Assembly: GCA_030156895.1 (NCBI GenBank)
Contig: JASGLP010000032.1
Location: 1-32,940, forward strand
DNA: 32,940 nt
Direction: 5' to 3'
Origin: Eubacteriaceae bacterium
GTDB lineage: Bacteria; Bacillota; Clostridia; Eubacteriales; Eubacteriaceae
Under the pieces are notes generated by a model. That model did not search any database. It was not told the origin of the DNA and saw only the letters and a list, made by a program, of their open reading frames with translations. Shown piece by piece: positions 5,639-31,179 of this stretch; position 1 is the first letter of the stretch, and the number at the start of each line of letters is the position of its first letter. A program made the position numbers and the translations under genes.

Positions 5639-5690
5639 TTTTTCTCTCCTCGTCTATTAAATTTAAACACAAGATGTTTTAATAAACCCC

Positions 5691-5821
5691 GCACCGACCA
5701 ATTGGATTTCGCAGTCTGCGCGCGGATTCGTACAGTTGCCCAATTTGGAAGTGCTAATTATTAGCGTTTCCCTGCAACTGTTCGCCCCGAGGCAGACAGC
5801 TGAAAAGCCAATTGTCGGTGC
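5691..5821. repeat. 131-bp imperfect palindromic intergenic element, copy 1
   Basis: Ends are inverted: GCACCGA(C)CAATTGG at 5691-5705 and CCAATTGTCGGTGC at 5808-5821. Inside, GTCTGC (5714-5719) pairs with GCAGAC (5792-5797), CAGTTGC (5733-5739) with GCAACTG (5774-5780), and the apex GCTAATTATTAGC (5753-5765) is nearly self-complementary. The whole element can therefore fold as one long interrupted hairpin in DNA or RNA. A gap-free second copy lies at 31002-31132; I count about 14 differences by hand (roughly 89% identical). It has no coding capacity of its own. It sits between the fused YeeE gene and the reductase gene, both on the minus strand. It could be a MITE-like non-autonomous element or a structured RNA; I do not recognise a named family. 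Confidence 0.85.
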
Positions 5822-5879
5822 TCAGGTGTTAAAATTAACTATATCTTCATTCTAAATAACAATCTGTTTAGTTATTAAT

Positions 5880-7133
5880 TTACTTTTTATAACGGCTAGG
5901 TGGCAATACATCCACTTTTCCGGCAAAAAATTTCAGGGCAAAGAGGCTGCCCAACCATAGGGTAAAGAAGAATCCCCAACCGGATAATGAAAAGTTCCCG
6001 ATTCCTGAGAAAAGGGCTCCAATATTACAACCACCTGCCAGTCTGGCACCAAAACCCATTAAAAATCCGCCCAGTAAATAATAGAGGCTGTCTTTAAATT
6101 TAAAGCCCCGGTTAAATGTCCAGCGGCCGGCAAATAAAAAGGCAATGGCCGCACCCAATATGATGCCGATATTTCTCAGGGATCCGGGATCATTTAGAAT
6201 CCCATTATTGGCAGCCAGTACATTCGATTGAAAAACCGGTGCTGTAAACGAAACCCCGAACATCTGTAAAAACGCAATCCCCCAAGTCGTTAAAGGCCCG
6301 GTTACTCCCCAGCTGTGACGGGCGGTAATTAAGATAAAGGCAAACATAATGGCAAGCAAAATCCCTCCGGTCATAAAGGACCAGCGCTGGACAAAGAGTT
6401 TGTGAAAGGTCGGATAGGAAAATAATTTAAAGGGTACCGTATCCGGAATTGGCAACTCTTCATCTTCATAAACTGTTTCAGTATATGTGCCTTCTTTTTT
6501 CCTAAAGTCCTCATATTTTCGGACAATAATATAAAGTATCAATAAAAGCAGATAGGATACCAGGACAGCTCCCACATAACCCAGTAAATCCGGCAGGTAC
6601 AATTCGATTCCAATTTGTCCAATGGCTGAATTATTTAAAGCACTTTGAGCCATCAAGCCGGGAATCGATCCGAATACAAAGGTGACCAGGGCGATCAGGG
6701 ATCTGCCTTCACCTTCCCCCACATCACTCAAGGTTCCTGATGCGCAGCCACCAGCTAAAATCATGCCGATACCAAACAAAAAGCCCCCCAGTAAAATCGA
6801 AATGTTAAGAAATTTCAAGGAGCTCAATCCCGGTGGATCAATCCCCATCTGGACCGCCGACCACTGCAAACCAGCTGCCAAAAACATGGAAATAGCGAAC
6901 ATCACCAGCAAGGCTTTACTTAAAGAGCCTTCGCCGGTTACATAAATTCGTTTAAATCCGCCGGCAAATCCGTAACGCGATCTGGTTAAAATGTAGCCAA
7001 GGGCCACACCAGTCATTAGAAAGAGCGGCAAAAACTGATCTTTCATCCCCTTTACCGCGCCGAAAATTATAATAGCGATTAATAATACCAAACCAATATA
7101 AGGTTGGATTTTCTTTTTAGGTGTTAATTCCAT
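5880..7133 (-). CDS. YeeE/YedE (TsuA-like) thiosulfate/sulfur transporter, fused two-repeat form
   Basis: Polytopic membrane protein (417 aa, about ten hydrophobic segments) of the YeeE/YedE family, whose studied members import thiosulfate through conserved cysteines. Two homologous halves are visible. Half 1 has LAGGCASGTLSDVGEG with Cys130. Half 2 has LAGGCNIGALFSGIGNFSLSG with Cys369. They are joined by a charged cytoplasmic linker near 205-240. Where the split homologue has RSRFCF, this protein has RSRYGF (Gly55 in place of Cys). The ATG at 7133 has a GGAGGAAG site. It lies between the rhodanese lipoprotein gene upstream and the reductase gene downstream, which suggests a surface-to-cytoplasm sulfane-sulfur route (inference). 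Substrate is unproven. Confidence 0.85.
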   Translation of the reverse strand: MELTPKKKIQPYIGLVLLIAIIIFGAVKGMKDQFLPLFLMTGVALGYILTRSRYGFAGGFKRIYVTGEGSLSKALLVMFAISMFLAAGLQWSAVQMGIDPPGLSSLKFLNISILLGGFLFGIGMILAGGCASGTLSDVGEGEGRSLIALVTFVFGSIPGLMAQSALNNSAIGQIGIELYLPDLLGYVGAVLVSYLLLLILYIIVRKYEDFRKKEGTYTETVYEDEELPIPDTVPFKLFSYPTFHKLFVQRWSFMTGGILLAIMFAFILITARHSWGVTGPLTTWGIAFLQMFGVSFTAPVFQSNVLAANNGILNDPGSLRNIGIILGAAIAFLFAGRWTFNRGFKFKDSLYYLLGGFLMGFGARLAGGCNIGALFSGIGNFSLSGWGFFFTLWLGSLFALKFFAGKVDVLPPSRYKK

Positions 7134-21497: not shown

Positions 21498-22787
21498 CTA
21501 CGCCAAATTGTTTTGCCATTTTACAATGTCATTAAGGTAATCCGCCACCAGTAATTCCTGATAGGCACTGTAACCATGGTCTTTCATTTTTAGAGCCAGA
21601 TCTATTAAAGCGACGCTGCTTATTTTTTCCAACTTCTTAAGGCGATTTGCCGGGATTTTTTTGCTTGAGCAGATTTTTTCATAGTCTGCGCAGGTAAATC
21701 GCCACAGAGTCAGGCTTTCTTGATAGCGTTTTTTTAATTTATCCGCAATCACCAGCCCTTCGGGATCAAGATCGCCAGCATAATAAATATGGCTACCCGA
21801 TTTTATCAGTAAATCCAGCAGGATCAGGGTGGCTACTTTTACATTCCCGGATGCACAAACCAGGGAACAGGGCAGATCATCCAGACTCCCAGCCATCTCA
21901 CTAAAAACCGTGGGGTTTTCAAAAACATAAACCCGATCACAAACCGCCGTCAGGCGATCCACCCTGCTCAAATTCCAAAGTGATAGCGAAAAGGGCTCAT
22001 TGCTTTTAAAAAATCCGGCGTATCCGGGATGGGGCTGATTATGATTGTAACCCATGATTGAACGACAGACCGTATAATTGGATACCTCATCATAAATAAG
22101 ACCCGCACGGTATAAAAGTTCCATCTGTTCTTCCGCATTGCGTGGAAAAGCGCTTTTGTAGTAATGGCACAAGGCATATAAGAGGAGGCGGCCCTCTTCC
22201 CGATTCATATCAAAGGCATGGGGATCTCTGGTCAGTTGCGAAGAAAAAAGCGGCAGACGAACCTTTTGCGAGCTTGCTACTGCCTTGTTAAGCCCCTGAC
22301 ACACCTGATTTAAAAGCTTTGACAGCTGCCTGGGATCTTTCTTGTAGTGGCGGTTGATAATCGGATAGGCTTTATCTTTATACTGCAACGTGTCAGAAAG
22401 CCAGAATCCCGCTGCCGTATTCTGATAACTTTCTGTAAAGACTTTAAAAAAATCGGCCTTTTCCTTTTGGGCCAGATCTTTTACTTCTTTTGTCCAGCTT
22501 AAGGGCTGGTCAAAGTAAAGGGGCAAAACCTCCTTAAAATCAAGACCTGCATATCTGGTTTGTTCAAAGGCCGCGATGAAGAGCTCAAGAGAAAAGCTGG
22601 CGCTCTTTTTAGAAAAATCTTTTCTAAGCAGACTGCGCAGTACGTTTCTTTCCGCTTCGGTTAGTTTTTCCAGACGAATAGTGCCGCCCAGGTGGCCCAG
22701 CGACTGATATTTATTTCGCATCTGCTCTAGAATCCGATGGTAACCGCGATCCGATTTTAGATAAGCCACAAAATCATGAAGCATCAT
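21498..22787 (-). CDS. jetD: Wadjet subunit JetD (TIGR02679/DUF2399-type Toprim nuclease)
   Basis: Nuclease subunit of 429 aa. Known JetD proteins resemble topoisomerase VI A subunits and cut plasmid DNA once the SMC motor has recognised a small closed circle. A Toprim-type catalytic set is visible in the C-terminal half: Glu290 in VYVFENPTVF and the DxD pair Asp339/Asp341 in YYAGDLDPEG, plus LVCASGNVKVA between. The N-terminal part (GGTIRLEKLTEAERNVLRSLL) looks like the DNA-binding region of the TIGR02679 family. The start (ATGATG at 22787) lies inside the end of jetC, a 14-bp overlap. Last gene of the operon. Confidence 0.87.
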   Translation of the reverse strand: MMLHDFVAYLKSDRGYHRILEQMRNKYQSLGHLGGTIRLEKLTEAERNVLRSLLRKDFSKKSASFSLELFIAAFEQTRYAGLDFKEVLPLYFDQPLSWTKEVKDLAQKEKADFFKVFTESYQNTAAGFWLSDTLQYKDKAYPIINRHYKKDPRQLSKLLNQVCQGLNKAVASSQKVRLPLFSSQLTRDPHAFDMNREEGRLLLYALCHYYKSAFPRNAEEQMELLYRAGLIYDEVSNYTVCRSIMGYNHNQPHPGYAGFFKSNEPFSLSLWNLSRVDRLTAVCDRVYVFENPTVFSEMAGSLDDLPCSLVCASGNVKVATLILLDLLIKSGSHIYYAGDLDPEGLVIADKLKKRYQESLTLWRFTCADYEKICSSKKIPANRLKKLEKISSVALIDLALKMKDHGYSAYQELLVADYLNDIVKWQNNLA

Positions 22788-25700
22788 CCATCACCAGTTT
22801 GCGGACTTTGCCATTCCAATGATAGCGTAGCACGGTCACAAAATCGGCATTATCCGGCCGGATTAGCTCACTAATGGCTAAGGCATCAACCGTATCATAG
22901 TCGCCCCAAAGAATCTGTGAATTGAGAATATAGCTTAAATCCAATTCATTGAGCAGTCTGAACATATCACGGATATTCTGTTCGTCGACGCCGGCGAAAG
23001 CTTCATCTAAAGAAAGCAGACGGGCGGTGTCTTTATTAGCGCCTTCATAGCGGGCATTGACCGCGGAGAAGAGGGGTACATACATGGCCATGGCCTTTTC
23101 GCCACCACTGAATTTAAAGAAAGCGTTATTGGTCAGCTCCTTACTCTGCTGGCCGGTTTTCTTAAAGAAGAGCTTAAATTCAAACCACTTCCGGTAATCC
23201 AGAATATCACGCATAATGGCATGAAAGGTCTGATCGATCCCCTTATCTTCGAGCAGTCTTCGAGCCAGCGAAATTTTCGACCGAAAATGCTCGGATAAAA
23301 TGTTCATATCTTCTTCCCGCAAGAGATTGCCGTCCATTTTCAGGAGATTCACCAACTCTTTGGTATCCAGCTGTTCCTCGGTCTCGGCCTTACGGCTGGC
23401 CCATCTGAGGCTAAAACTCAAGCCCATGGAGGTGTCCATTTTTTCCATCAGACGATTCATATTTGCCACCCATTTTTCGCTATGAAAAATTCGGGCACTG
23501 ATTTTTTTAGAAATATTTTTCAGTAAAATTTCTTCAAACAGCTCACGATCGCTATCTCTTAAAAGCTGCTCCGTTTCTGTGAGACTTTCCTTAAGATAAT
23601 CGGACAGGACTAAAAAATTAACGACTTTACCGGATAGCTTGGCTGTAATATTGAGTCTTTGTCTGAGACTGCCAATTTCCGGATTGGCAGAATCATCCTC
23701 AAAAATATAGTGACTGGTTACAGAAAAATCCCGCAGATACTGGCTCTGCTCCATAAAAATTTCTTTCAGCCGCATGGTTATTTTTTCTTTATTCTGACTT
23801 TCCGCCGGTGGATACTCTTGCAAAATCGCGGCGGCCTGATCAGCCAGGGATTGGTCAGGATTATTTTCCAGATAGCCAAGAGCCAGTTCTTCTTGCAGAG
23901 CCATTGTCACTAAATCAAAGGTCTTGTGGGTGTGGCTGATTCTGTTTTCCAGATCATCTTTATCCTGTCTGATTCGTTGACAATTTATTTTTAGCCGTTC
24001 CACCCCTTTGATCGCTTCCTCTTTCTGTTGGGGGATTTCTTTGATGGCTTTTAAACACTTTTCAATCTCAGCCTGAATCATTTGATAGTCACTTAAGGCC
24101 AGTTGATCCTGCAAGTTTTTTAGGGTCATCTCCAGGGTGGTCAGGTTTTTGTTGAACTGATTCAACTCATAAATCAAGTCATCTATTTCTGCCAGAACTT
24201 CCTGGTAGCGGTTTTTTAATGATTTAATCGTGTCATTCAGATTAACCAGCTTTATATTTTTTTTCTCAAGCTGGTGGAGTTGACGAAAATAAGTATTTGC
24301 CGCTTCCTGAGCCTGCTCATAAGTTTCAATATCCAAAGTCAGTTCAAAGCGTCTGGTCACCTGAAATAATTCTTCATTTAAATCCTTTAAAATTTTAAAC
24401 CGTTTCTCTTCCTCTTTGTTTTTCTGGGCAAGTTGCTGGCTACTGCTTGTAACATCAAAGATAGCTTTTTTAACATCATCTGCGGCAGTAATTAAATCCT
24501 CAGCATTAAAAAGTTTTAAGAACTCTCTTTTTAAGGTGGCGCGTCGCTCCTGGAGTCTGGTTTTTTGGGTTCCTAAATCATCCAAGTCCGCTAATAACTG
24601 AGCCAGCTGACCCTTAAGCTCAGCCCGTCTTTCTTCCCAGTATTTTTTTCTGGCCGAAAAGCCAATGTAGCGGGGTTCATTTTCGCCCGCGGCCTGACCA
24701 TGCAAAATTCCCAGACGGTAATTCCCCGCTTCATCCATTCGGGTGTGATGACTTTCATCAATCAGAATAGAGTTTAAGATATTCTGCACTTCCTGTTTAT
24801 CAGAAACCGCGTCATCAACCTGCAGATACTGATTGATAGTATGAACCATCAGTTTGGGTTCGGCAAAAAGGTATTTATCACCGTGCAGGTTCTCTTCATT
24901 TAAAACGCGATCACGGTATGCTTCCGGCATAATCAGAGCATCCAGAATCCCCATATCAGTCAGAGCTTCTTCGATTAGACCCTGGGTTTTTTTATCACTT
25001 TCAGCGGTGAAATCCAGGGCTTTATAAAGGGGCAGACAGGGAATTCCCAGCTCCGCTAATTTTTGCCGGGATTTTATAATGGCTTCATCTCGTTTGGGTT
25101 CAGCTTCTTTCATGCTGTTCCATTCATCAATTTCCGCCTCTTTGTCCAGACGTTTTTGATCGATTTCCGCCTGTTTTCCACTGTTTACAAGCAAGGCTTC
25201 ACGCAAAACTTCATCGCAAAGATGATATTCTTCCTCTAAAATACCATTTATTTCCAGGGGACTGCAATCCGGTCCAAATTGTCTCACCGCCCGGGAAACT
25301 TCGGTTAAAGCCGTCTCGCTAAGCTTAAGCTCCTGATTGTTGAGTTGACTAAAATAAATTTTTTCCAGCGCTTCTTCCTGGGTTTCCATTAACTGCCGAT
25401 TGGCCTGATCCAGGAATCTTTCCATTTCTTCCTGCTGCTTTTTCAGCTCATCAAGCTCAGCCAATAAGCTCTGATATACCGCATTTTCCATTTTCTGCCG
25501 GGTCAGCAACAAAACTGCCTGACCCAGACTTTTGATCATTTGCTCAAGCACCCCGTTGATATAGTGAAAATCATATGTCTGGGTCAGGTCTTTTTTGATT
25601 TCGTCAAGCATAAATCCATGCTCGTCAAAGTCAAACACCTGCGCCGATTCAGCCATTTCTTCCAGCTGGGCAAGCAGGTCTTTTTCAAGCAGATCAAGTT

Positions 25701-26844
25701 GACTTTCTTCCTCTTCCACCTGATTTAAAAGATCACGTTCAAGCTGCCGTTTATTTTCATGCTGACGGTCTTTCATTTCCTTTTGTGTCCTAACACGAGC
25801 GATCTCATCTTCAGCACTTAATATCTTTTCTCGAATCCCGACGGAATCGTGTTTTTCAAGTTCTTTCTTCTTGTCTTCCTGAACTGTCAGTTGAATCGAT
25901 AAGTCCGTGATTGTTTCTTGCAGCTCCTGTAATTCCTTTTGAGCGGTGTCCAAATTTTTACTTAGCTGTGCTTGCTCAAGCTTAGCTTGTTGATAATCCT
26001 GTCGCGTCTTGAGATAAGCCTGGGACTTATTGGCCGCAAGATACTGGTTGTAGCGATCAAAAGCGTTGCGAATCCGATCAGCCGCGCTTTTACTGACCTT
26101 AAGGACTTCCAGCCGGCTTTTGATGTTATCCATATTTTCAATGGCCTCTGACATGGGTCTGAGATCATCTTCCGATAAGGGCTGGAGGGAATTCTCCATG
26201 ATCTCATAAATAACGGTGGGTTTGAATTCTTTGGATAGCTTGGGGCTGCGCAGCTGCACCAGCAACTTAACCAGCTCGTCATATTCATCCAGATCATCAA
26301 AACCAAAAATCAGATCGTTGACCATTTTCATATAGTTCTTCTGACCTTCAACAACCTGTCCCCCATCAGCCAGACGATTTTGCAGTTCCCGCATGGTCAG
26401 GGGGATTTTTTCGCCCACCTGTTTATACAAGAAAAAATCTTTACCGATCTGGCGGCCATCATTGATCGAAAAGCCCCAGGAGGTCATGGGTTTTCCCCTT
26501 TTGGCCCGGAAGCCCATCCCAATGGTGATCAGATTATTGGAAACTTTCTTTTTAAATTCCATAAACAGATAGCCGATGGACTCTTCCTTGCCATTATCAT
26601 CGTCGCCCAAAATATAGTTTTCGATTTTTCGGGCTTTGGAACCGAAAGGATCCAGCCGCTCAGGGCTTTTATTGCCATCCAGCAAAAGGGGAATAAAACT
26701 TTGCATGGTAACCGATTTACCCGATCCGTTTGAGCCCCGCAAAAGCAGACGGCCATTTGAAAACTCAAAAATTTCTTCATCATAATACCAGAAATTAACC
26801 AGTCCAGCGCGGTTGATCACCCAGCGATTATCCTGTTTTTCCAC
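22774..26844 (-). CDS. jetC: Wadjet subunit JetC (SMC-like ATPase, TIGR02680-type)
   Basis: SMC-family motor of 1356 aa. It starts WVINRAGLVNFWYYDEEIFE, then Walker A GSNGSGKS (about 37-44) and LDPFGSKARK, all typical of TIGR02680. Two long Gln/Glu/Lys-rich coiled-coil arms flank a central hinge-like region around 600-750. The C-terminal head has signature FSGGEK (about 1245-1250) and Walker B LLSLDEAF (about 1276-1283). By analogy it forms a dimer that extrudes DNA loops and tests circle size. The GTG at 26844 is preferred, with GAGGAGG 9 bases upstream; an earlier GTG at 26871 has no site. It overlaps jetB by 17 bp and jetD by 14 bp. Confidence 0.9.
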   Translation of the reverse strand: MEKQDNRWVINRAGLVNFWYYDEEIFEFSNGRLLLRGSNGSGKSVTMQSFIPLLLDGNKSPERLDPFGSKARKIENYILGDDDNGKEESIGYLFMEFKKKVSNNLITIGMGFRAKRGKPMTSWGFSINDGRQIGKDFFLYKQVGEKIPLTMRELQNRLADGGQVVEGQKNYMKMVNDLIFGFDDLDEYDELVKLLVQLRSPKLSKEFKPTVIYEIMENSLQPLSEDDLRPMSEAIENMDNIKSRLEVLKVSKSAADRIRNAFDRYNQYLAANKSQAYLKTRQDYQQAKLEQAQLSKNLDTAQKELQELQETITDLSIQLTVQEDKKKELEKHDSVGIREKILSAEDEIARVRTQKEMKDRQHENKRQLERDLLNQVEEEESQLDLLEKDLLAQLEEMAESAQVFDFDEHGFMLDEIKKDLTQTYDFHYINGVLEQMIKSLGQAVLLLTRQKMENAVYQSLLAELDELKKQQEEMERFLDQANRQLMETQEEALEKIYFSQLNNQELKLSETALTEVSRAVRQFGPDCSPLEINGILEEEYHLCDEVLREALLVNSGKQAEIDQKRLDKEAEIDEWNSMKEAEPKRDEAIIKSRQKLAELGIPCLPLYKALDFTAESDKKTQGLIEEALTDMGILDALIMPEAYRDRVLNEENLHGDKYLFAEPKLMVHTINQYLQVDDAVSDKQEVQNILNSILIDESHHTRMDEAGNYRLGILHGQAAGENEPRYIGFSARKKYWEERRAELKGQLAQLLADLDDLGTQKTRLQERRATLKREFLKLFNAEDLITAADDVKKAIFDVTSSSQQLAQKNKEEEKRFKILKDLNEELFQVTRRFELTLDIETYEQAQEAANTYFRQLHQLEKKNIKLVNLNDTIKSLKNRYQEVLAEIDDLIYELNQFNKNLTTLEMTLKNLQDQLALSDYQMIQAEIEKCLKAIKEIPQQKEEAIKGVERLKINCQRIRQDKDDLENRISHTHKTFDLVTMALQEELALGYLENNPDQSLADQAAAILQEYPPAESQNKEKITMRLKEIFMEQSQYLRDFSVTSHYIFEDDSANPEIGSLRQRLNITAKLSGKVVNFLVLSDYLKESLTETEQLLRDSDRELFEEILLKNISKKISARIFHSEKWVANMNRLMEKMDTSMGLSFSLRWASRKAETEEQLDTKELVNLLKMDGNLLREEDMNILSEHFRSKISLARRLLEDKGIDQTFHAIMRDILDYRKWFEFKLFFKKTGQQSKELTNNAFFKFSGGEKAMAMYVPLFSAVNARYEGANKDTARLLSLDEAFAGVDEQNIRDMFRLLNELDLSYILNSQILWGDYDTVDALAISELIRPDNADFVTVLRYHWNGKVRKLVMDDAS

Positions 26845-27973
26845 TTTTCTTAACCTCCTCGGGATAGTCACCCGTCAGTTTCCCCGCAATGGGCAAAATT
26901 TCAATTTCCCGGCCATCCAGATAAGCGGCCAGCATTTTAAAGTCTTCCATATATGCAATCAGTCTTTGTGACAGCAGGGATGCCGTCATTTCCCGATACT
27001 CCTTGCTCCAGCGTTGGCCTTCTTCCTCTTTTAATTCTTTGACCAATAAATCAAAGGCGGGTCTTGACAGCCTGATCCCCCCTTTATCGGTGAGCTCAAG
27101 CTTTTTACTTAATAAACGGTCTCTGATTTTTTTACAAAAGAGCAAAACAATATCAGAAATCACTTTACTATTGGGAAAAAGGTCTTTCAGATTTTTTTCC
27201 TGGGGAATCAGTAAGAGGGCCCCATTTTTATGAACCTGCAAGGGGTAGGATAAATAGCTGGCAAAATCATCCTCAATCATGCCCCGCTGTTTTTTGATAT
27301 AGTCATAATCGGCATCATCTGCTCCCGAGCTGTAAACAACTGGCTCCATCAGCAGTTTTCGATAAACACGGTGACGTCTGATCACACCACGATCCGCATT
27401 CAGGTCTCCCCATTCCATCTGCGAAAGTTCTTCATGGCTGCTAAAAGCCATTATATCCGTCGTGAACTGGCGGGCAAAATAGCGGGAGATGCCAGTGCTC
27501 TCATAAAGAACTTCCGTGCCCAAATCCTGGGCAAATTTTTGGTCATCCCCGTCATTAACCTTGATCATCCCCATTTCCTGGACAAAACGCAGGACTTTTA
27601 CAAAAGACTTGCGTTGACTAAAAAGGGTCCAGTCAATTTTTTCATGGCCAACCGGATGGCTTACAATAAACTCGGTCACTTGTGACAAGACAAACTGCTC
27701 GTCCCGAGACCGGTCTTCCAGAAACATTAAAAGCTGGCATAAAAGAATATACTCGAGTTTTTGCGTAAATTCCTGAATGCCCATAAAGGCCTGGGGGGCA
27801 CCGGGAATTTTTTCCAGCTTGATCAAATGCTGATTCATCACCAGGCCATAGCCCAGTTTTTCACTTAAAAATGATCGATACTCTGGAATAGAATCCTTGA
27901 TCTGGTAAAACAAGGCCTTGTTGTCGTTTTTAATGATCCAGTACTGATCCAGTAGCACTTCTAGTCCCTTCAT
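26828..27973 (-). CDS. jetB: Wadjet subunit JetB (TIGR02678/DUF2398-type)
   Basis: Protein of 381 aa, the kite-like (MukE-equivalent) partner of the SMC motor. Family features seen by eye: EKLGYGLVMNQHLIKLEK near the start, YILLCQLLMFLEDRSRDEQF, VLRFVQEMGMIKVNDGD, and EPVVYSSGADDADYDYIKKQ with QRGMIEDDFASYLSYPL. These match TIGR02678 (DUF2398) rather than DUF4194 of the best-studied Wadjet type. Its ATG overlaps the jetA stop as ATGA, so synthesis is coupled. Confidence 0.82.
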   Translation of the reverse strand: MKGLEVLLDQYWIIKNDNKALFYQIKDSIPEYRSFLSEKLGYGLVMNQHLIKLEKIPGAPQAFMGIQEFTQKLEYILLCQLLMFLEDRSRDEQFVLSQVTEFIVSHPVGHEKIDWTLFSQRKSFVKVLRFVQEMGMIKVNDGDDQKFAQDLGTEVLYESTGISRYFARQFTTDIMAFSSHEELSQMEWGDLNADRGVIRRHRVYRKLLMEPVVYSSGADDADYDYIKKQRGMIEDDFASYLSYPLQVHKNGALLLIPQEKNLKDLFPNSKVISDIVLLFCKKIRDRLLSKKLELTDKGGIRLSRPAFDLLVKELKEEEGQRWSKEYREMTASLLSQRLIAYMEDFKMLAAYLDGREIEILPIAGKLTGDYPEEVKKSGKTG

Positions 27974-29475
27974 ACTTGATCCCCTTCCTGATCCAGAAAT
28001 TCTATCACATAGGCAGGCATGGTCAGGCTGCCATCGTGGCAGTTCAGGATACAGGTTTGGTCGGCCGGATTTGGCATCAGAACCTGGTAGTATCTTCCAT
28101 CCTCTGTCTTCCCCTGCCTGGAGCTTGATCCCAAACCTTTACTGAGCCAGCGCAGCAGGGTTACTCGGACATGGCTTTCAATGACCGGCAAGTTTTTAAA
28201 GTCGATTTTATTATCGGCCACGTAAGATTGAATGGTTTCTTCTTCCATTTGCCTGGTCGCTCTGATTTTTGCCATCATTTCAGCTTTTTTCTGGGCATTA
28301 CTGCGAATGGGTGATCGGCTGGCCTTCTCCTGATAGCCCCGGATTCTTGGTTTGAGCAAAAAAGTCCCCGGCACTTCCGAAAAGATATGGCTGGAGATTG
28401 ACTCTGTTTCTCTGATCTGATCCGATTTAAAATGCTTCATCTGAAAAAGACCAAAAACCTGAGCCGACAACTCATGGGCTTTTTTAATATCCGGGCAAGA
28501 ATCAAAAAGTTGTGCCAGCTTCAGATATTCTTCCCGGCGATTGATGGTGGCATTTTTGCTTTCGGAGATCTGCGCCGCATAGCGGGTGATCTTACGGATG
28601 ATGTTGTTGGTAATATCCATTAATTTCAAGGCTTCGCTCTGTTCACCATTTTCGCCCAGAAACCAAACATTGAGGCTTTCCCATCGGCCCAAAATGTTTT
28701 CACGCATATCCTTTTCGTCAACTTCCAGATCGATTCGCGGGATTGATAATTCATAATCCACCACTTTGTTAAAAACCTGATCCACCAAATCTGGCGAAAA
28801 ATTGCCTAAGAGATGCTCTATGGCATGGGCATGCAATTGAAGACCTTTAACGAAATCTCGCAGATACTCGATAAAGCGATCCTTAAAGACCATAAACTCT
28901 TTGGTCTGCATCATTTCTTCGGCTTTGATCGAAAAGAGGTCTCGGACGTAATCCTGGTAATTCTGATTCAGCCGTTTAAAATCACTGCTCAAGGCAGACC
29001 ACCAGCTGCCTGCCTCTTTAGCCTCTTTAGTGGCCATCTGGGGCAGTTTTTTGAGTTCGTCTCGCAGGCGCTCAAGCAGGGTGGGCTCCAGAGAGGCACT
29101 TTCAACCAGCAAATTCTCCAAACGCAGGGTTAATCGCTCAATCTCCACACTGTACTCTGTCAGCTGATAGCGATATTGTTTGTTCTTAAATTCTTCGACC
29201 GTCGAAACTTTTGTCGTGTCCTGAATTGCCGATAGATTTCGCCAGGTCATTAAAACATCCAAATCCTGCTTGCACTGGTCAAGTGTATAAGTGCTAAAGA
29301 GATCATTTTCCCGCAGGGCTTCGTAGACGTCTTCTTTGTAAAGCCAGTATTTCATTTTTTCATACTGATGGTAAAAAAAGCGCAGAATGCTTCGGTAACG
29401 CCAGCTGTTGTCAGTTGTCAGGTAGCGCATTTCATCGATCTGTTTGGTCACTTTTGGGTTTACTTCAAATATCAT
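27970..29475 (-). CDS. jetA: Wadjet subunit JetA (TIGR02677/DUF2397-type kleisin)
   Basis: Protein of 501 aa, first gene of the operon. The N-terminus EMRYLTTDNSWRYRSILRFFY, then KEDVYEALRENDLFSTYTLDQC, DLDVLMTWRNLSAIQD and YRYQLTEYSVEIERL, matches the winged-helix start of TIGR02677 (DUF2397). The middle is helical and charged, and the C-terminus again looks globular. In Wadjet complexes JetA is the MukF-like kleisin that bridges the SMC heads and recruits JetB. ATG at 29475 with AAGGAAAA upstream at slightly long spacing. A terminator and a fragment of the 131-bp repeat separate it from the HlyC-type gene; I find no clear promoter in the gap. Confidence 0.82.
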   Translation of the reverse strand: MIFEVNPKVTKQIDEMRYLTTDNSWRYRSILRFFYHQYEKMKYWLYKEDVYEALRENDLFSTYTLDQCKQDLDVLMTWRNLSAIQDTTKVSTVEEFKNKQYRYQLTEYSVEIERLTLRLENLLVESASLEPTLLERLRDELKKLPQMATKEAKEAGSWWSALSSDFKRLNQNYQDYVRDLFSIKAEEMMQTKEFMVFKDRFIEYLRDFVKGLQLHAHAIEHLLGNFSPDLVDQVFNKVVDYELSIPRIDLEVDEKDMRENILGRWESLNVWFLGENGEQSEALKLMDITNNIIRKITRYAAQISESKNATINRREEYLKLAQLFDSCPDIKKAHELSAQVFGLFQMKHFKSDQIRETESISSHIFSEVPGTFLLKPRIRGYQEKASRSPIRSNAQKKAEMMAKIRATRQMEEETIQSYVADNKIDFKNLPVIESHVRVTLLRWLSKGLGSSSRQGKTEDGRYYQVLMPNPADQTCILNCHDGSLTMPAYVIEFLDQEGDQV

Positions 29476-29504: not shown

Positions 29505-29534
29505 AAAAAAAGAAGGCTGTACAATCGTACAACC
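29505..29534 (-). terminator. Rho-independent terminator after the HlyC/CorC-type gene
   Basis: On the minus strand GGTTGTAC (29534-29527), a 4-nt loop, and GTACAGCC (29522-29515) form an 8-bp stem with one G-T pair. TTC and then seven T (29511-29505) follow. It ends the CorC/HlyC transcript and insulates the jet operon, 30 bp before jetA. Confidence 0.75.
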
Positions 29535-29554
29535 TCAAAGCACGAGCTTACTCA

Positions 29555-29580
29555 GCACCGACAATTGGATTTCGCAGTCT
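29555..29580. repeat. 26-bp fragment of the 131-bp palindromic element (left end)
   Basis: The first 26 bases match the left end of the full element with one base deleted (GCACCGA, CAATTGGATTTCGCAGTCT), then similarity stops. The deleted base makes its terminal repeat look like the right end, read inverted. It lies between the HlyC-type stop and its terminator. Likely a solo end left by deletion, or an incomplete insertion. Confidence 0.7.
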
Positions 29581-30961: not shown

Positions 30962-30976
30962 AAACATATTACCATA
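30962..30976. repeat. 15-bp direct repeat, left member, flanking repeat copy 2
   Basis: AAACATATTACCATA recurs exactly at 31165-31179, in the same orientation, 203 bp away. The two bracket the 131-bp element at distances of 25 and 32 bp. This member contains the putative -10 of the CorC/HlyC-type promoter. Confidence 0.7.
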
Positions 30977-30993
30977 CACTTAAGTTCTATCAA
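30966..30993 (-). promoter_or_regulatory. Candidate promoter for the CorC/HlyC-type gene
   Basis: Minus strand TTGATA (30993-30988, 5 of 6), 16-bp spacer, TAATAT (30971-30966, 4 of 6). It begins 8 bp downstream of the end of the 131-bp element and about 120 bp before the chosen start codon. Confidence 0.45.
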
Positions 30994-31001
30994 CAAACTC
31001 C

Positions 31002-31132
31002 GCACCGATCAATTGGATTTCGTAGTCTGCGCGCGGATTCGTACAATTGCCCAATTTGGATGCCCTAATTAATAGCGTATTCCAGCAACTGTTCGCCCCG
31101 AGGCAGACAAGCGAAAAGCCAATTGTCGTTGC
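31002..31132. repeat. 131-bp imperfect palindromic intergenic element, copy 2
   Basis: Aligns without gaps to copy 1 over its whole length, with about 14 differences by hand count. The terminal repeat is GCACCGA(T)CAATTGG against CCAATTGTCGTTGC, with one new mismatch. GTCTGC/GCAGAC is intact. The inner arm is CAATTGC against GCAACTG, a mismatch on the plus strand but a G-U pair if read as minus-strand RNA. Differences cluster at the apex. It lies between telA and the CorC/HlyC-type gene, both minus strand, the same orientation relative to genes as copy 1. Confidence 0.85.
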
Positions 31133-31164
31133 TCAGCTAGAAAATTAATTTTGTGCCTATTTTG

Positions 31165-31179
31165 AAACATATTACCATA
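31165..31179. repeat. 15-bp direct repeat, right member, flanking repeat copy 2
   Basis: Exact second copy of AAACATATTACCATA (see 30962-30976). It lies 32 bp outside the right end of the palindromic element. Its spacing is too wide for an ordinary target-site duplication of the 131-bp unit, but would fit a larger inserted or duplicated segment. Confidence 0.7.

What the first reader, a model, noticed from the sequence alone, without database searches (positions are those of the whole stretch)
5691..5821. A 131-bp hairpin-forming repeat family with terminal inverted repeats
Seen directly: two gap-free copies (5691-5821, 31002-31132) about 25 kb apart, with matching ends, several nested complementary blocks and a palindromic apex. 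Both lie between tandem minus-strand genes. The conserved length and structure, with few differences in the paired blocks, suggest either a non-autonomous mobile element (MITE-like) or a selected RNA structure. In copy 2 the one inner-stem change keeps a G-U pair only if transcribed from the minus strand, the direction of the neighbouring genes. I do not recognise it as a described family.
Basis: partly seen in the sequence, partly recalled or inferred. Interest (0 to 1): 0.72.

Follow-up and report, generated by a model that had tools for sequence, protein, structure and literature searches.

The report
Terminator-targeting mini-transposon in Acetobacterium
The repeat is a small, gene-less mobile DNA element, very likely moved by a known kind of transposase, that tends to jump into the hairpins ending bacterial genes and to leave the hairpin doubled on both of its sides; it is a new variant of a known kind.

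Summary
Two 131-bp copies, 117 of 131 bases identical, belong to a family with 111 matching sites in this 3.0-Mb draft genome. BLAST finds relatives in 14 of 18 other genomes of the genus, none of 22 outside. The genus is inferred to be Acetobacterium. The 131 bp is only the inner hairpin; the unit is about 180 bp with imperfect terminal repeats. It is a MITE: its two ends match those of a multi-copy IS1182-type insertion sequence in another genome of the genus at 15 of 15 and 15 of 19 bases. Of 92 copies, 66 have a flanking direct repeat, against 0.9% of permuted pairs. Hairpins stand in at least one flank of 65 of 92, against 17.4 in shuffles. Four of five related IS1182 elements read at both ends show the doubled hairpin too. 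Window copy 2 has a 15-bp target duplication, single in a relative; copy 1 has empty sites in six relatives. Neither window copy shows a hairpin. No partner transposase was found in this 85%-complete assembly. The core's pairing is conserved, but orientation to genes is random (36 of 72), so an RNA role is not shown.

The parts
5672..5854 (-). MITE copy 1, whole element (183 bp, worn ends); the strand given is the one read from the CAGACTG end
   Evidence: Ends placed by eye against the family end consensus; absent from the syntenic gap in the six relatives aligned; no flanking repeat or hairpin found
5691..5821 (-). Copy 1, inner 131-bp hairpin core
5672..5690 (+). Copy 1, degenerate terminal repeat of the CAGTGTGTAGACAAACCCC type
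   Evidence: Sequence, position
5839..5854 (-). Copy 1, degenerate terminal repeat of the CAGACTGAAGACAAAG type
   Evidence: Sequence, position
30977..31164 (-). MITE copy 2, whole element (188 bp) between the two target repeats, ends worn
31002..31132 (-). Copy 2, inner 131-bp hairpin core
30962..30976 (.). Target duplication, left (AAACATATTACCATA)
   Evidence: one changed copy (13 of 15) in relative G014
31165..31179 (.). Target duplication, right (AAACATATTACCATA)
   Evidence: one changed copy (13 of 15) in relative G014
29555..29580 (+). Remnant of a third, deleted copy (outer part of the core only)
   Evidence: 27-column match; sequence
29514..29535 (.). Terminator-like hairpin beside the remnant
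   Evidence: Sequence, position; judged by eye

Best explanation
It is a non-autonomous, gene-less mobile element (MITE) of an IS1182-type insertion sequence of Acetobacterium. An IS1182 transposase acting in trans recognises the two ends (CAGTGTGTAGACAAAC and CAGACTGAAGACAAAG). It prefers hairpin (palindromic) DNA, largely terminator-like hairpins just behind genes. It joins the element to the feet of the hairpin so that repair copies the whole hairpin, and many insertions are left with a hairpin on both sides. Shown: ends shared with the IS, copy number, flanking repeats and hairpins above controls, empty sites, target duplication at copy 2. Inferred: action in trans, recognition of the hairpin as a structure, strand transfer at the 5' feet, and that the hairpins are working terminators. 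The long inner hairpin is kept by pairing; its exact role (help in mobility, or arms correcting one another) is open.
For: Copy number: 111 places. Ends: CAGNNTGNAGACAAA occurs 64 times in the own genome and 51 times in 16 of 18 relatives, against 4 for the reversed pattern in all 19 (some relatives' hits are chance, e.g. one in coding DNA, L154). The end of a multi-copy IS at contig ends of G013 and G017 is CAGACTGAAGACAAAG: 15 of 15 with the family consensus, a sixteenth base, G, agrees; its other end in G013, CAGAGCGAAGACAAACCCG, matches 15 of 19. That IS encodes an N-terminus 58% identical over 40 aa to the intact IS1182 transposase of G062; its C-terminal pieces match NF033551 below the whole-protein cut-off. 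Intact elements of G062 (473 and 472 bits, cut-off 270) are flanked by identical 24-bp and 21-bp hairpins. Flank repeats: 66 of 92 copies score 10 or more against 0.9% of 1814 permuted pairs. Hairpins (stem score 6 or more): either flank 65 of 92 against 17.4 in dinucleotide shuffles, both flanks 35 against 1.25; 54 of the 66 repeats go with a hairpin. Empty sites and duplicated target. Gene 3' ends: 27 convergent against 5 divergent in the own genome, 16 against 1 in named relatives.
Against: No IS1182 transposase over cut-off is in the window's own assembly, 85% complete; the partner may be lost or unassembled. 26 of 92 copies show no convincing flank repeat, window copy 1 among them, and neither window copy has a hairpin flank. 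Of five IS elements with both ends read, one (L193, G014, broken gene) has different hairpins on its two sides. No complete IS with exactly the CAGACTGAAGACAAAG end was read in one piece; that its N- and C-terminal pieces belong together rests on complementary flanking hairpins at three of the five right ends read. In G017 two of six ends read lead into another, unidentified interior (L143, L146). Only 55 of 94 copies match the right end at 13 or more of 15.
Confidence: 0.9

Rival explanations
1. The core is a selected structured RNA, made from the minus strand, that the mobile element carries; mobility only spreads it.
For: In 53 own copies pairing is kept at 97.0% of cells against 95.7% in shuffles and the covariation score is 0.082 against 0.055 (0 of 500 shuffles as high); 4 of 7 apex pairs change on both sides. 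On a tree 32 pair-to-pair changes, and 44 towards G-U against 18 towards A-C, p 0.0013. Loop motifs stay alike across species while stems differ.
Against: The number of pairs with a change on both sides (6 against 5.0, 120 of 500) and of further pair types (22 against 21.0, 174 of 500), the measures least inflated by relatedness, do not exceed shuffles. 69 further tree changes go to other mismatches. The G-U excess is not clearly above the bias at unpaired sites (80:46 against 158:127, Fisher p 0.13; C-to-T against G-to-A alone p 0.054). Orientation to tandem genes: 26 of 41 in the own genome, 10 of 31 in named relatives, 36 of 72 pooled. No Rfam family at E up to 10.
Confidence: 0.12
2. Paired change reflects template-switch (quasi-palindrome) repair of a DNA hairpin, one arm correcting the other, without selection on RNA; the fast-changing apex is where hairpins are opened and repaired.
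For: Changes per column on the tree: apex 13.7, unpaired outside the apex 5.1, paired 2.9 (computed); paired apex changes; random orientation.
Against: Does not by itself explain the loop bases shared between species. The apex rate may be inflated by misalignment, since several relatives have a short apex. The mechanism itself is recalled knowledge, not tested.
Confidence: 0.35
3. The apex is a guide: each copy's variable tip pairs with its target.
For: The tip varies from copy to copy while the rest is conserved.
Against: Longest match or complement between apex and own flanks averages 6.1, and 5.8 to 6.2 with flanks of other copies (74 copies).
Confidence: 0.02
4. The flanking hairpins are part of the element (a variable outer stem), not duplicated target.
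For: A hairpin stands in both flanks of 35 of 92 copies.
Against: Hairpin sequences differ between copies and many carry A-runs and T-runs (T-run of 4 or more on the right in 57 of 95, 30 of 95 further out). IS1182 elements with other interiors show the same. G014 has one copy of the target of window copy 2.
Confidence: 0.04

Closest known systems
IS1182-family insertion sequences (NF033551), e.g. the intact elements in G062
   Same: Same type of ends (CAGACTG...GACAAA), terminator-like hairpin as target, hairpin on both sides
   Different: The window element has no transposase gene; the own assembly has no IS1182 gene over cut-off
IS1272 / TnSha1 of staphylococci (IS1182 family; PMC4923244 and PMC5678879, passages read)
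   Same: Targets hairpins, including terminators, with no common target sequence
   Different: Reported to delete or replace the hairpin without target duplication; here the hairpin is often kept and doubled, as in the hypothetical pathway b of Fig. 13 of PMC5678879
Bacterial MITEs (review PMC10969869, passages read)
   Same: Short, gene-less, terminal inverted repeats, target duplication, high copy number
   Different: Long nested hairpin kept over a genus; hairpin targets; IS1182 parent (the word IS1182 does not occur in that review's main text)

Membership tests
MITE | Short, multi-copy, no transposase gene | tested here: met
   About 180 bp, 111 places; no ORF of 100 aa or more overlaps either window copy
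MITE | Terminal inverted repeats | tested here: met
   Consensus CAGTGTGTAGACAAA / CAGACTGAAGACAAA, 11 of 15 identical; worn in both window copies
MITE | Target site duplication and empty sites | tested here: met
   66 of 92 copies with flank repeat; empty sites and single target in relatives; no repeat at window copy 1
MITE of IS1182 | Ends shared with an autonomous IS1182 element | tested here: met
   15 of 15 and 15 of 19 bases with the IS of G013; its protein pieces match IS1182; that IS was read only in pieces
MITE of IS1182 | Autonomous partner in the same genome | tested here: not met
   None over cut-off in the 85%-complete assembly
MITE of IS1182 | Movement by the IS1182 transposase | not testable with these tools
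   Needs an experiment
IS1272-type hairpin replacement | Hairpin removed, no duplication | tested here: not met
   66 of 92 copies with flank repeat, 54 of these with a hairpin
Known RNA family | Match to an Rfam covariance model | tested here: not met
   No match at gathering score in the window, none at E up to 10 for 5640-5880
REP/REPIN with RAYT transposase | RAYT (Y1) transposase partner and REP motif | not tested
   Not searched

The most novel reading that the evidence does not exclude
A transposon-carried structured RNA: the conserved hairpin core is transcribed from the minus strand and selected, for instance to help the transposase act in trans or to alter termination at the doubled terminator it creates.
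Probability: 0.1. Interest if true: 0.75.

Novelty: new variant of a known kind. Interest (0 to 1): 0.5.

Why it matters
It gives dozens of natural insertions, with both flanks readable, of an IS1182-type element that keeps and doubles a hairpin. In the papers seen, structure-dependent transposition is described for IS1272, where the hairpin is lost; the duplicating route was drawn in PMC5678879 as a possibility. Acetobacterium would offer a direct test of it. Insertion into gene-end hairpins while keeping a hairpin on either side may also explain how more than 100 copies are tolerated in a 3-Mb genome (inference).

Tried and rejected
Rfam: nothing. Phage and plasmid collections: nothing. IS1182 was first a lead recalled from memory; PF13751 in the own genome gave none, and the PF05598 hit in the own genome (L172) proved IS5-type, so the partner was sought by its ends instead. 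The hit in G009 at L159 is a decayed relic; L187 in G009 is a broken copy of the same IS with one base changed in the end. For L162, L165-L171 and L176 no matching end was found in the fetched stretch, which does not always reach both ends. Guide hypothesis tested and rejected. A sense-strand RNA role was tested by orientation: own genome suggestive (26 of 41, p 0.12), relatives the other way (10 of 31, p 0.07), pooled even. Casposon/Cas1 and group IIC intron were considered from memory and not searched.

Sets used: of 95 rows one is an artefact (antisense row of L016) and two lack a left flank, so searches used 92. One search used 53 of the 54 copies of length 131 in standard register; L041 was left out. 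The guide test used 74 copies in which both anchors were found. The genome-wide BLAST was capped at 40 places scored of 149 candidates.

Literature: searches were listings of an open-licence library; only passages were read in PMC12056078, PMC3281130, PMC4923244, PMC5678879 and PMC10969869. In these I saw no report of this Acetobacterium repeat; Siguier 2015 was seen only as cited in PMC4923244 and PMC5678879.

Full report
What is there. A BLAST search of the window's own genome (G000, 2,997,552 bases, 101 contigs, 85% complete) listed 40 distinct places, as many as it scored, out of 149 candidates; the window's second copy was not among them. A 19-base piece of the core with up to 3 mismatches occurs at 111 places, 49 forward and 62 reverse, against 1 for the reversed pattern. 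A left-end pattern occurs at 78 places, reversed control 0, some of them in shorter or longer versions with the same ends.

The true unit. Aligning copies with their flanks shows that conservation runs on beyond the 131 bp: on one side CAGTGTGTAGACAAACCCC, on the other TTTGTCTTCAGTCTG, whose reverse complement is CAGACTGAAGACAAA. The two ends agree at 11 of 15 bases. The unit is about 180 bp; in the window 5672-5854 and 30977-31164, both with worn ends. Versions run from 84 bp (L134) to long ones with an extra module of about 80 bp after position 35 (L006, L077, L063, L108, L076, L056).

Where it sits. Printed flanks suggested that many copies lie in a terminator-like hairpin and that the same hairpin stands on both sides. 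Over 92 copies (3 of 95 rows dropped: one antisense artefact, two cut by contig ends) the best direct match between left and right flank scores 10 or more in 66 and 12 or more in 58; in 1814 permuted pairs these are 0.9% and 0.06%. A hairpin with stem score 6 or more is in the left flank of 54, the right of 46, either of 65 and both of 35; dinucleotide shuffles give 10.3, 8.4, 17.4 and 1.25. Of the 66 repeats 54 go with a hairpin. The other 26 copies show no convincing repeat, among them window copy 1; window copy 2 has a repeat but no hairpin. T-runs of 4 or more stand on the right in 57 of 95, against 30 of 95 further out. Gene context of 88 copies: convergent 27, tandem 41, divergent 5, edge 15; 6 overlap a called ORF; the median distance on the stop-codon side is 51 bp (simple ORF finder).

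Empty sites. The gap between the YedE-like and the CoA-disulfide-reductase-like genes, which holds copy 1, is without the element in the six relatives aligned of the nine with a match to the YedE-like protein: G014, G016, G012, G002, G001 and G008. At copy 2 the window has AAACATATTACCATA at 30962-30976 and again at 31165-31179; the printed G014 stretch has it once, changed at 2 of 15 bases, and no element there. G014 carries its own copy at another point of the same intergenic gap, so the two look like separate insertions.

The partner. The end motif CAGNNTGNAGACAAA occurs 64 times in the own genome and 51 times in 16 of 18 other genus genomes, against 4 for the reversed pattern; some of the 51 are chance. 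In G013 and G017 most hits stand about 110-240 bases from contig ends, the mark of a multi-copy IS; all 11 such ends that I fetched (six of G017, five of G013) lie just behind a hairpin, judged by eye. One end reads CAGACTGAAGACAAAG and, in nine of the 11, leads to or towards an open frame; in L143 and L146 it leads into another interior that I did not identify. The other end, found beside IS1182 C-terminal pieces in G013, reads CAGAGCGAAGACAAACCCG. The family consensus matches the two ends at 15 of 15 and 15 of 19 bases. In three of the five G013 right ends the hairpin is the complement of that at a left end on another contig, i.e. both sides of one insertion (by eye). Complete relatives: in G062, another genus of the same family, two IS of 1569 and 1568 bp with 504- and 507-aa transposases (NF033551, 473 and 472 bits, cut-off 270) are flanked by TAACGTCCTCATTTGAGGACGTTA and AGGCTTTCTGTACGAAAGCCT on both sides. 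In G012 (474 aa, 362 bits) the two flanking hairpins are nearly identical and in G007 (broken gene) identical over 20 bp, with ends CAGACTGTCAAA; in G014 (broken gene) they differ. MITEs of A. dehalogenans and A. wieringae carry the end CAGACTGTCAAAAAAG, that of the IS in G012. No IS1182 gene over cut-off is in G000.

Distribution and name. 15 of 41 genomes have a BLAST match: own, 14 of 18 of the genus, 0 of 22 outside. BLAST misses some: G008 and G013, counted as without, carry related cores found through their ends, and G058 of another genus has a unit with like ends and another core (L196). A pattern scan of named genomes gave 56 stretches, 53 titled Acetobacterium and 3 titled as Firmicutes or Bacillota MAGs.

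Structure and its meaning. The core folds far better than shuffles (z -7.99). In 53 own copies 97.0% of pair cells are standard (shuffles 95.7%) and covariation is 0.082 against 0.055, no shuffle of 500 as high; but the number of pairs with a change on both sides (6 against 5.0) and of further pair types (22 against 21.0) do not exceed shuffles (120 and 174 of 500). 4 of the 7 apex pairs change on both sides. In other species the stems differ while pairing and internal loops stay. On a tree of own and related copies there are 32 pair-to-pair changes, 44 towards G-U, 18 towards A-C (p 0.0013) and 69 to other mismatches on the minus strand. The same direction of change is 158:127 at unpaired sites against 80:46 at paired ones (Fisher p 0.13; C-to-T against G-to-A alone p 0.054). 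Orientation to tandem genes is 26 of 41 along the genes in the own genome and 10 of 31 in named relatives, 36 of 72 in all. I conclude that the hairpin is maintained but that selection on a transcript is not shown. The apex changes 13.7 times per column on the tree against 5.1 at other unpaired and 2.9 at paired columns (computed; apex alignment is uncertain). It does not match its own flanks better than those of other copies, so a guide role is unlikely.

Mechanism. IS1182-family elements are known to take hairpins as targets: TnSha1/IS1272 inserts in hairpins, several of them terminators, and deletes part of the stem without duplication (PMC4923244, passages), and IS1272 replaces the hairpin (PMC5678879, passages). 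The latter paper draws a route b in which the 3' ends of the element join the 5' feet of the stem-loop and the whole stem-loop is duplicated. The present family shows that outcome many times over. The step from outcome to mechanism is inference.

Verdict. A MITE of an IS1182-type IS, hairpin-targeting and hairpin-duplicating, with this core found only in Acetobacterium as far as searched. New variant of a known kind.

Noticed in passing
window 21498-29475: Four adjacent minus-strand genes match JetD, JetC, JetB and JetA of PADLOC type 2 (Wadjet-like anti-plasmid system), each by a wide margin; the largest also passes the TIGR02680 cut-off.
   Followed up: partly
L006 185-396, L077 306-517, L063 1336-1547, L108 322-534, L076 313-524, L056 1339-1547; also L128 and relatives L205, L208, L210-L212, L229-L231, L237, L244: An extra structured module of about 80 nt (GGCAAYGAGCCAA...TTGGCGACTGCCCGCG) sits inside long copies, at more than one position, in several species; a strict pattern found 13 inside and 0 outside elements in the fetched DNA, which is centred on elements; a worn piece lies outside one in L245.
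   Followed up: partly
L124, L126, L140, L158 and relatives L214, L229, L235, L239, L253: A REP-like hairpin of about 19 nt (GGGTCTGCCCCCTTGGGT and variants) is inserted in some copies, in several species.
   Followed up: no
L160 456-503 (G004:C115): A 48-bp palindrome made only of two ends face to face, CAGACTGAAGACAAAGGCCAGAAAATCCTGGCCTTTGTCTTCAGTCTG.
   Followed up: no
L196 (G058, other genus of the family): A MITE-like unit with end CAGTGTGTCGACAAACCC beside an IS end CAGACTGTCGACAAAG: the MITE end seems to follow the IS end of its host.
   Followed up: partly
L143 416-584 and L146 361-529 (G017): The same 44-bp IS end leads into a second interior (TTTATTAGACTTTAGTCTG...) that was not identified.
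   Followed up: no
window 29555-29580: Remnant of a third copy next to a terminator-like hairpin at 29514-29535.
   Followed up: partly
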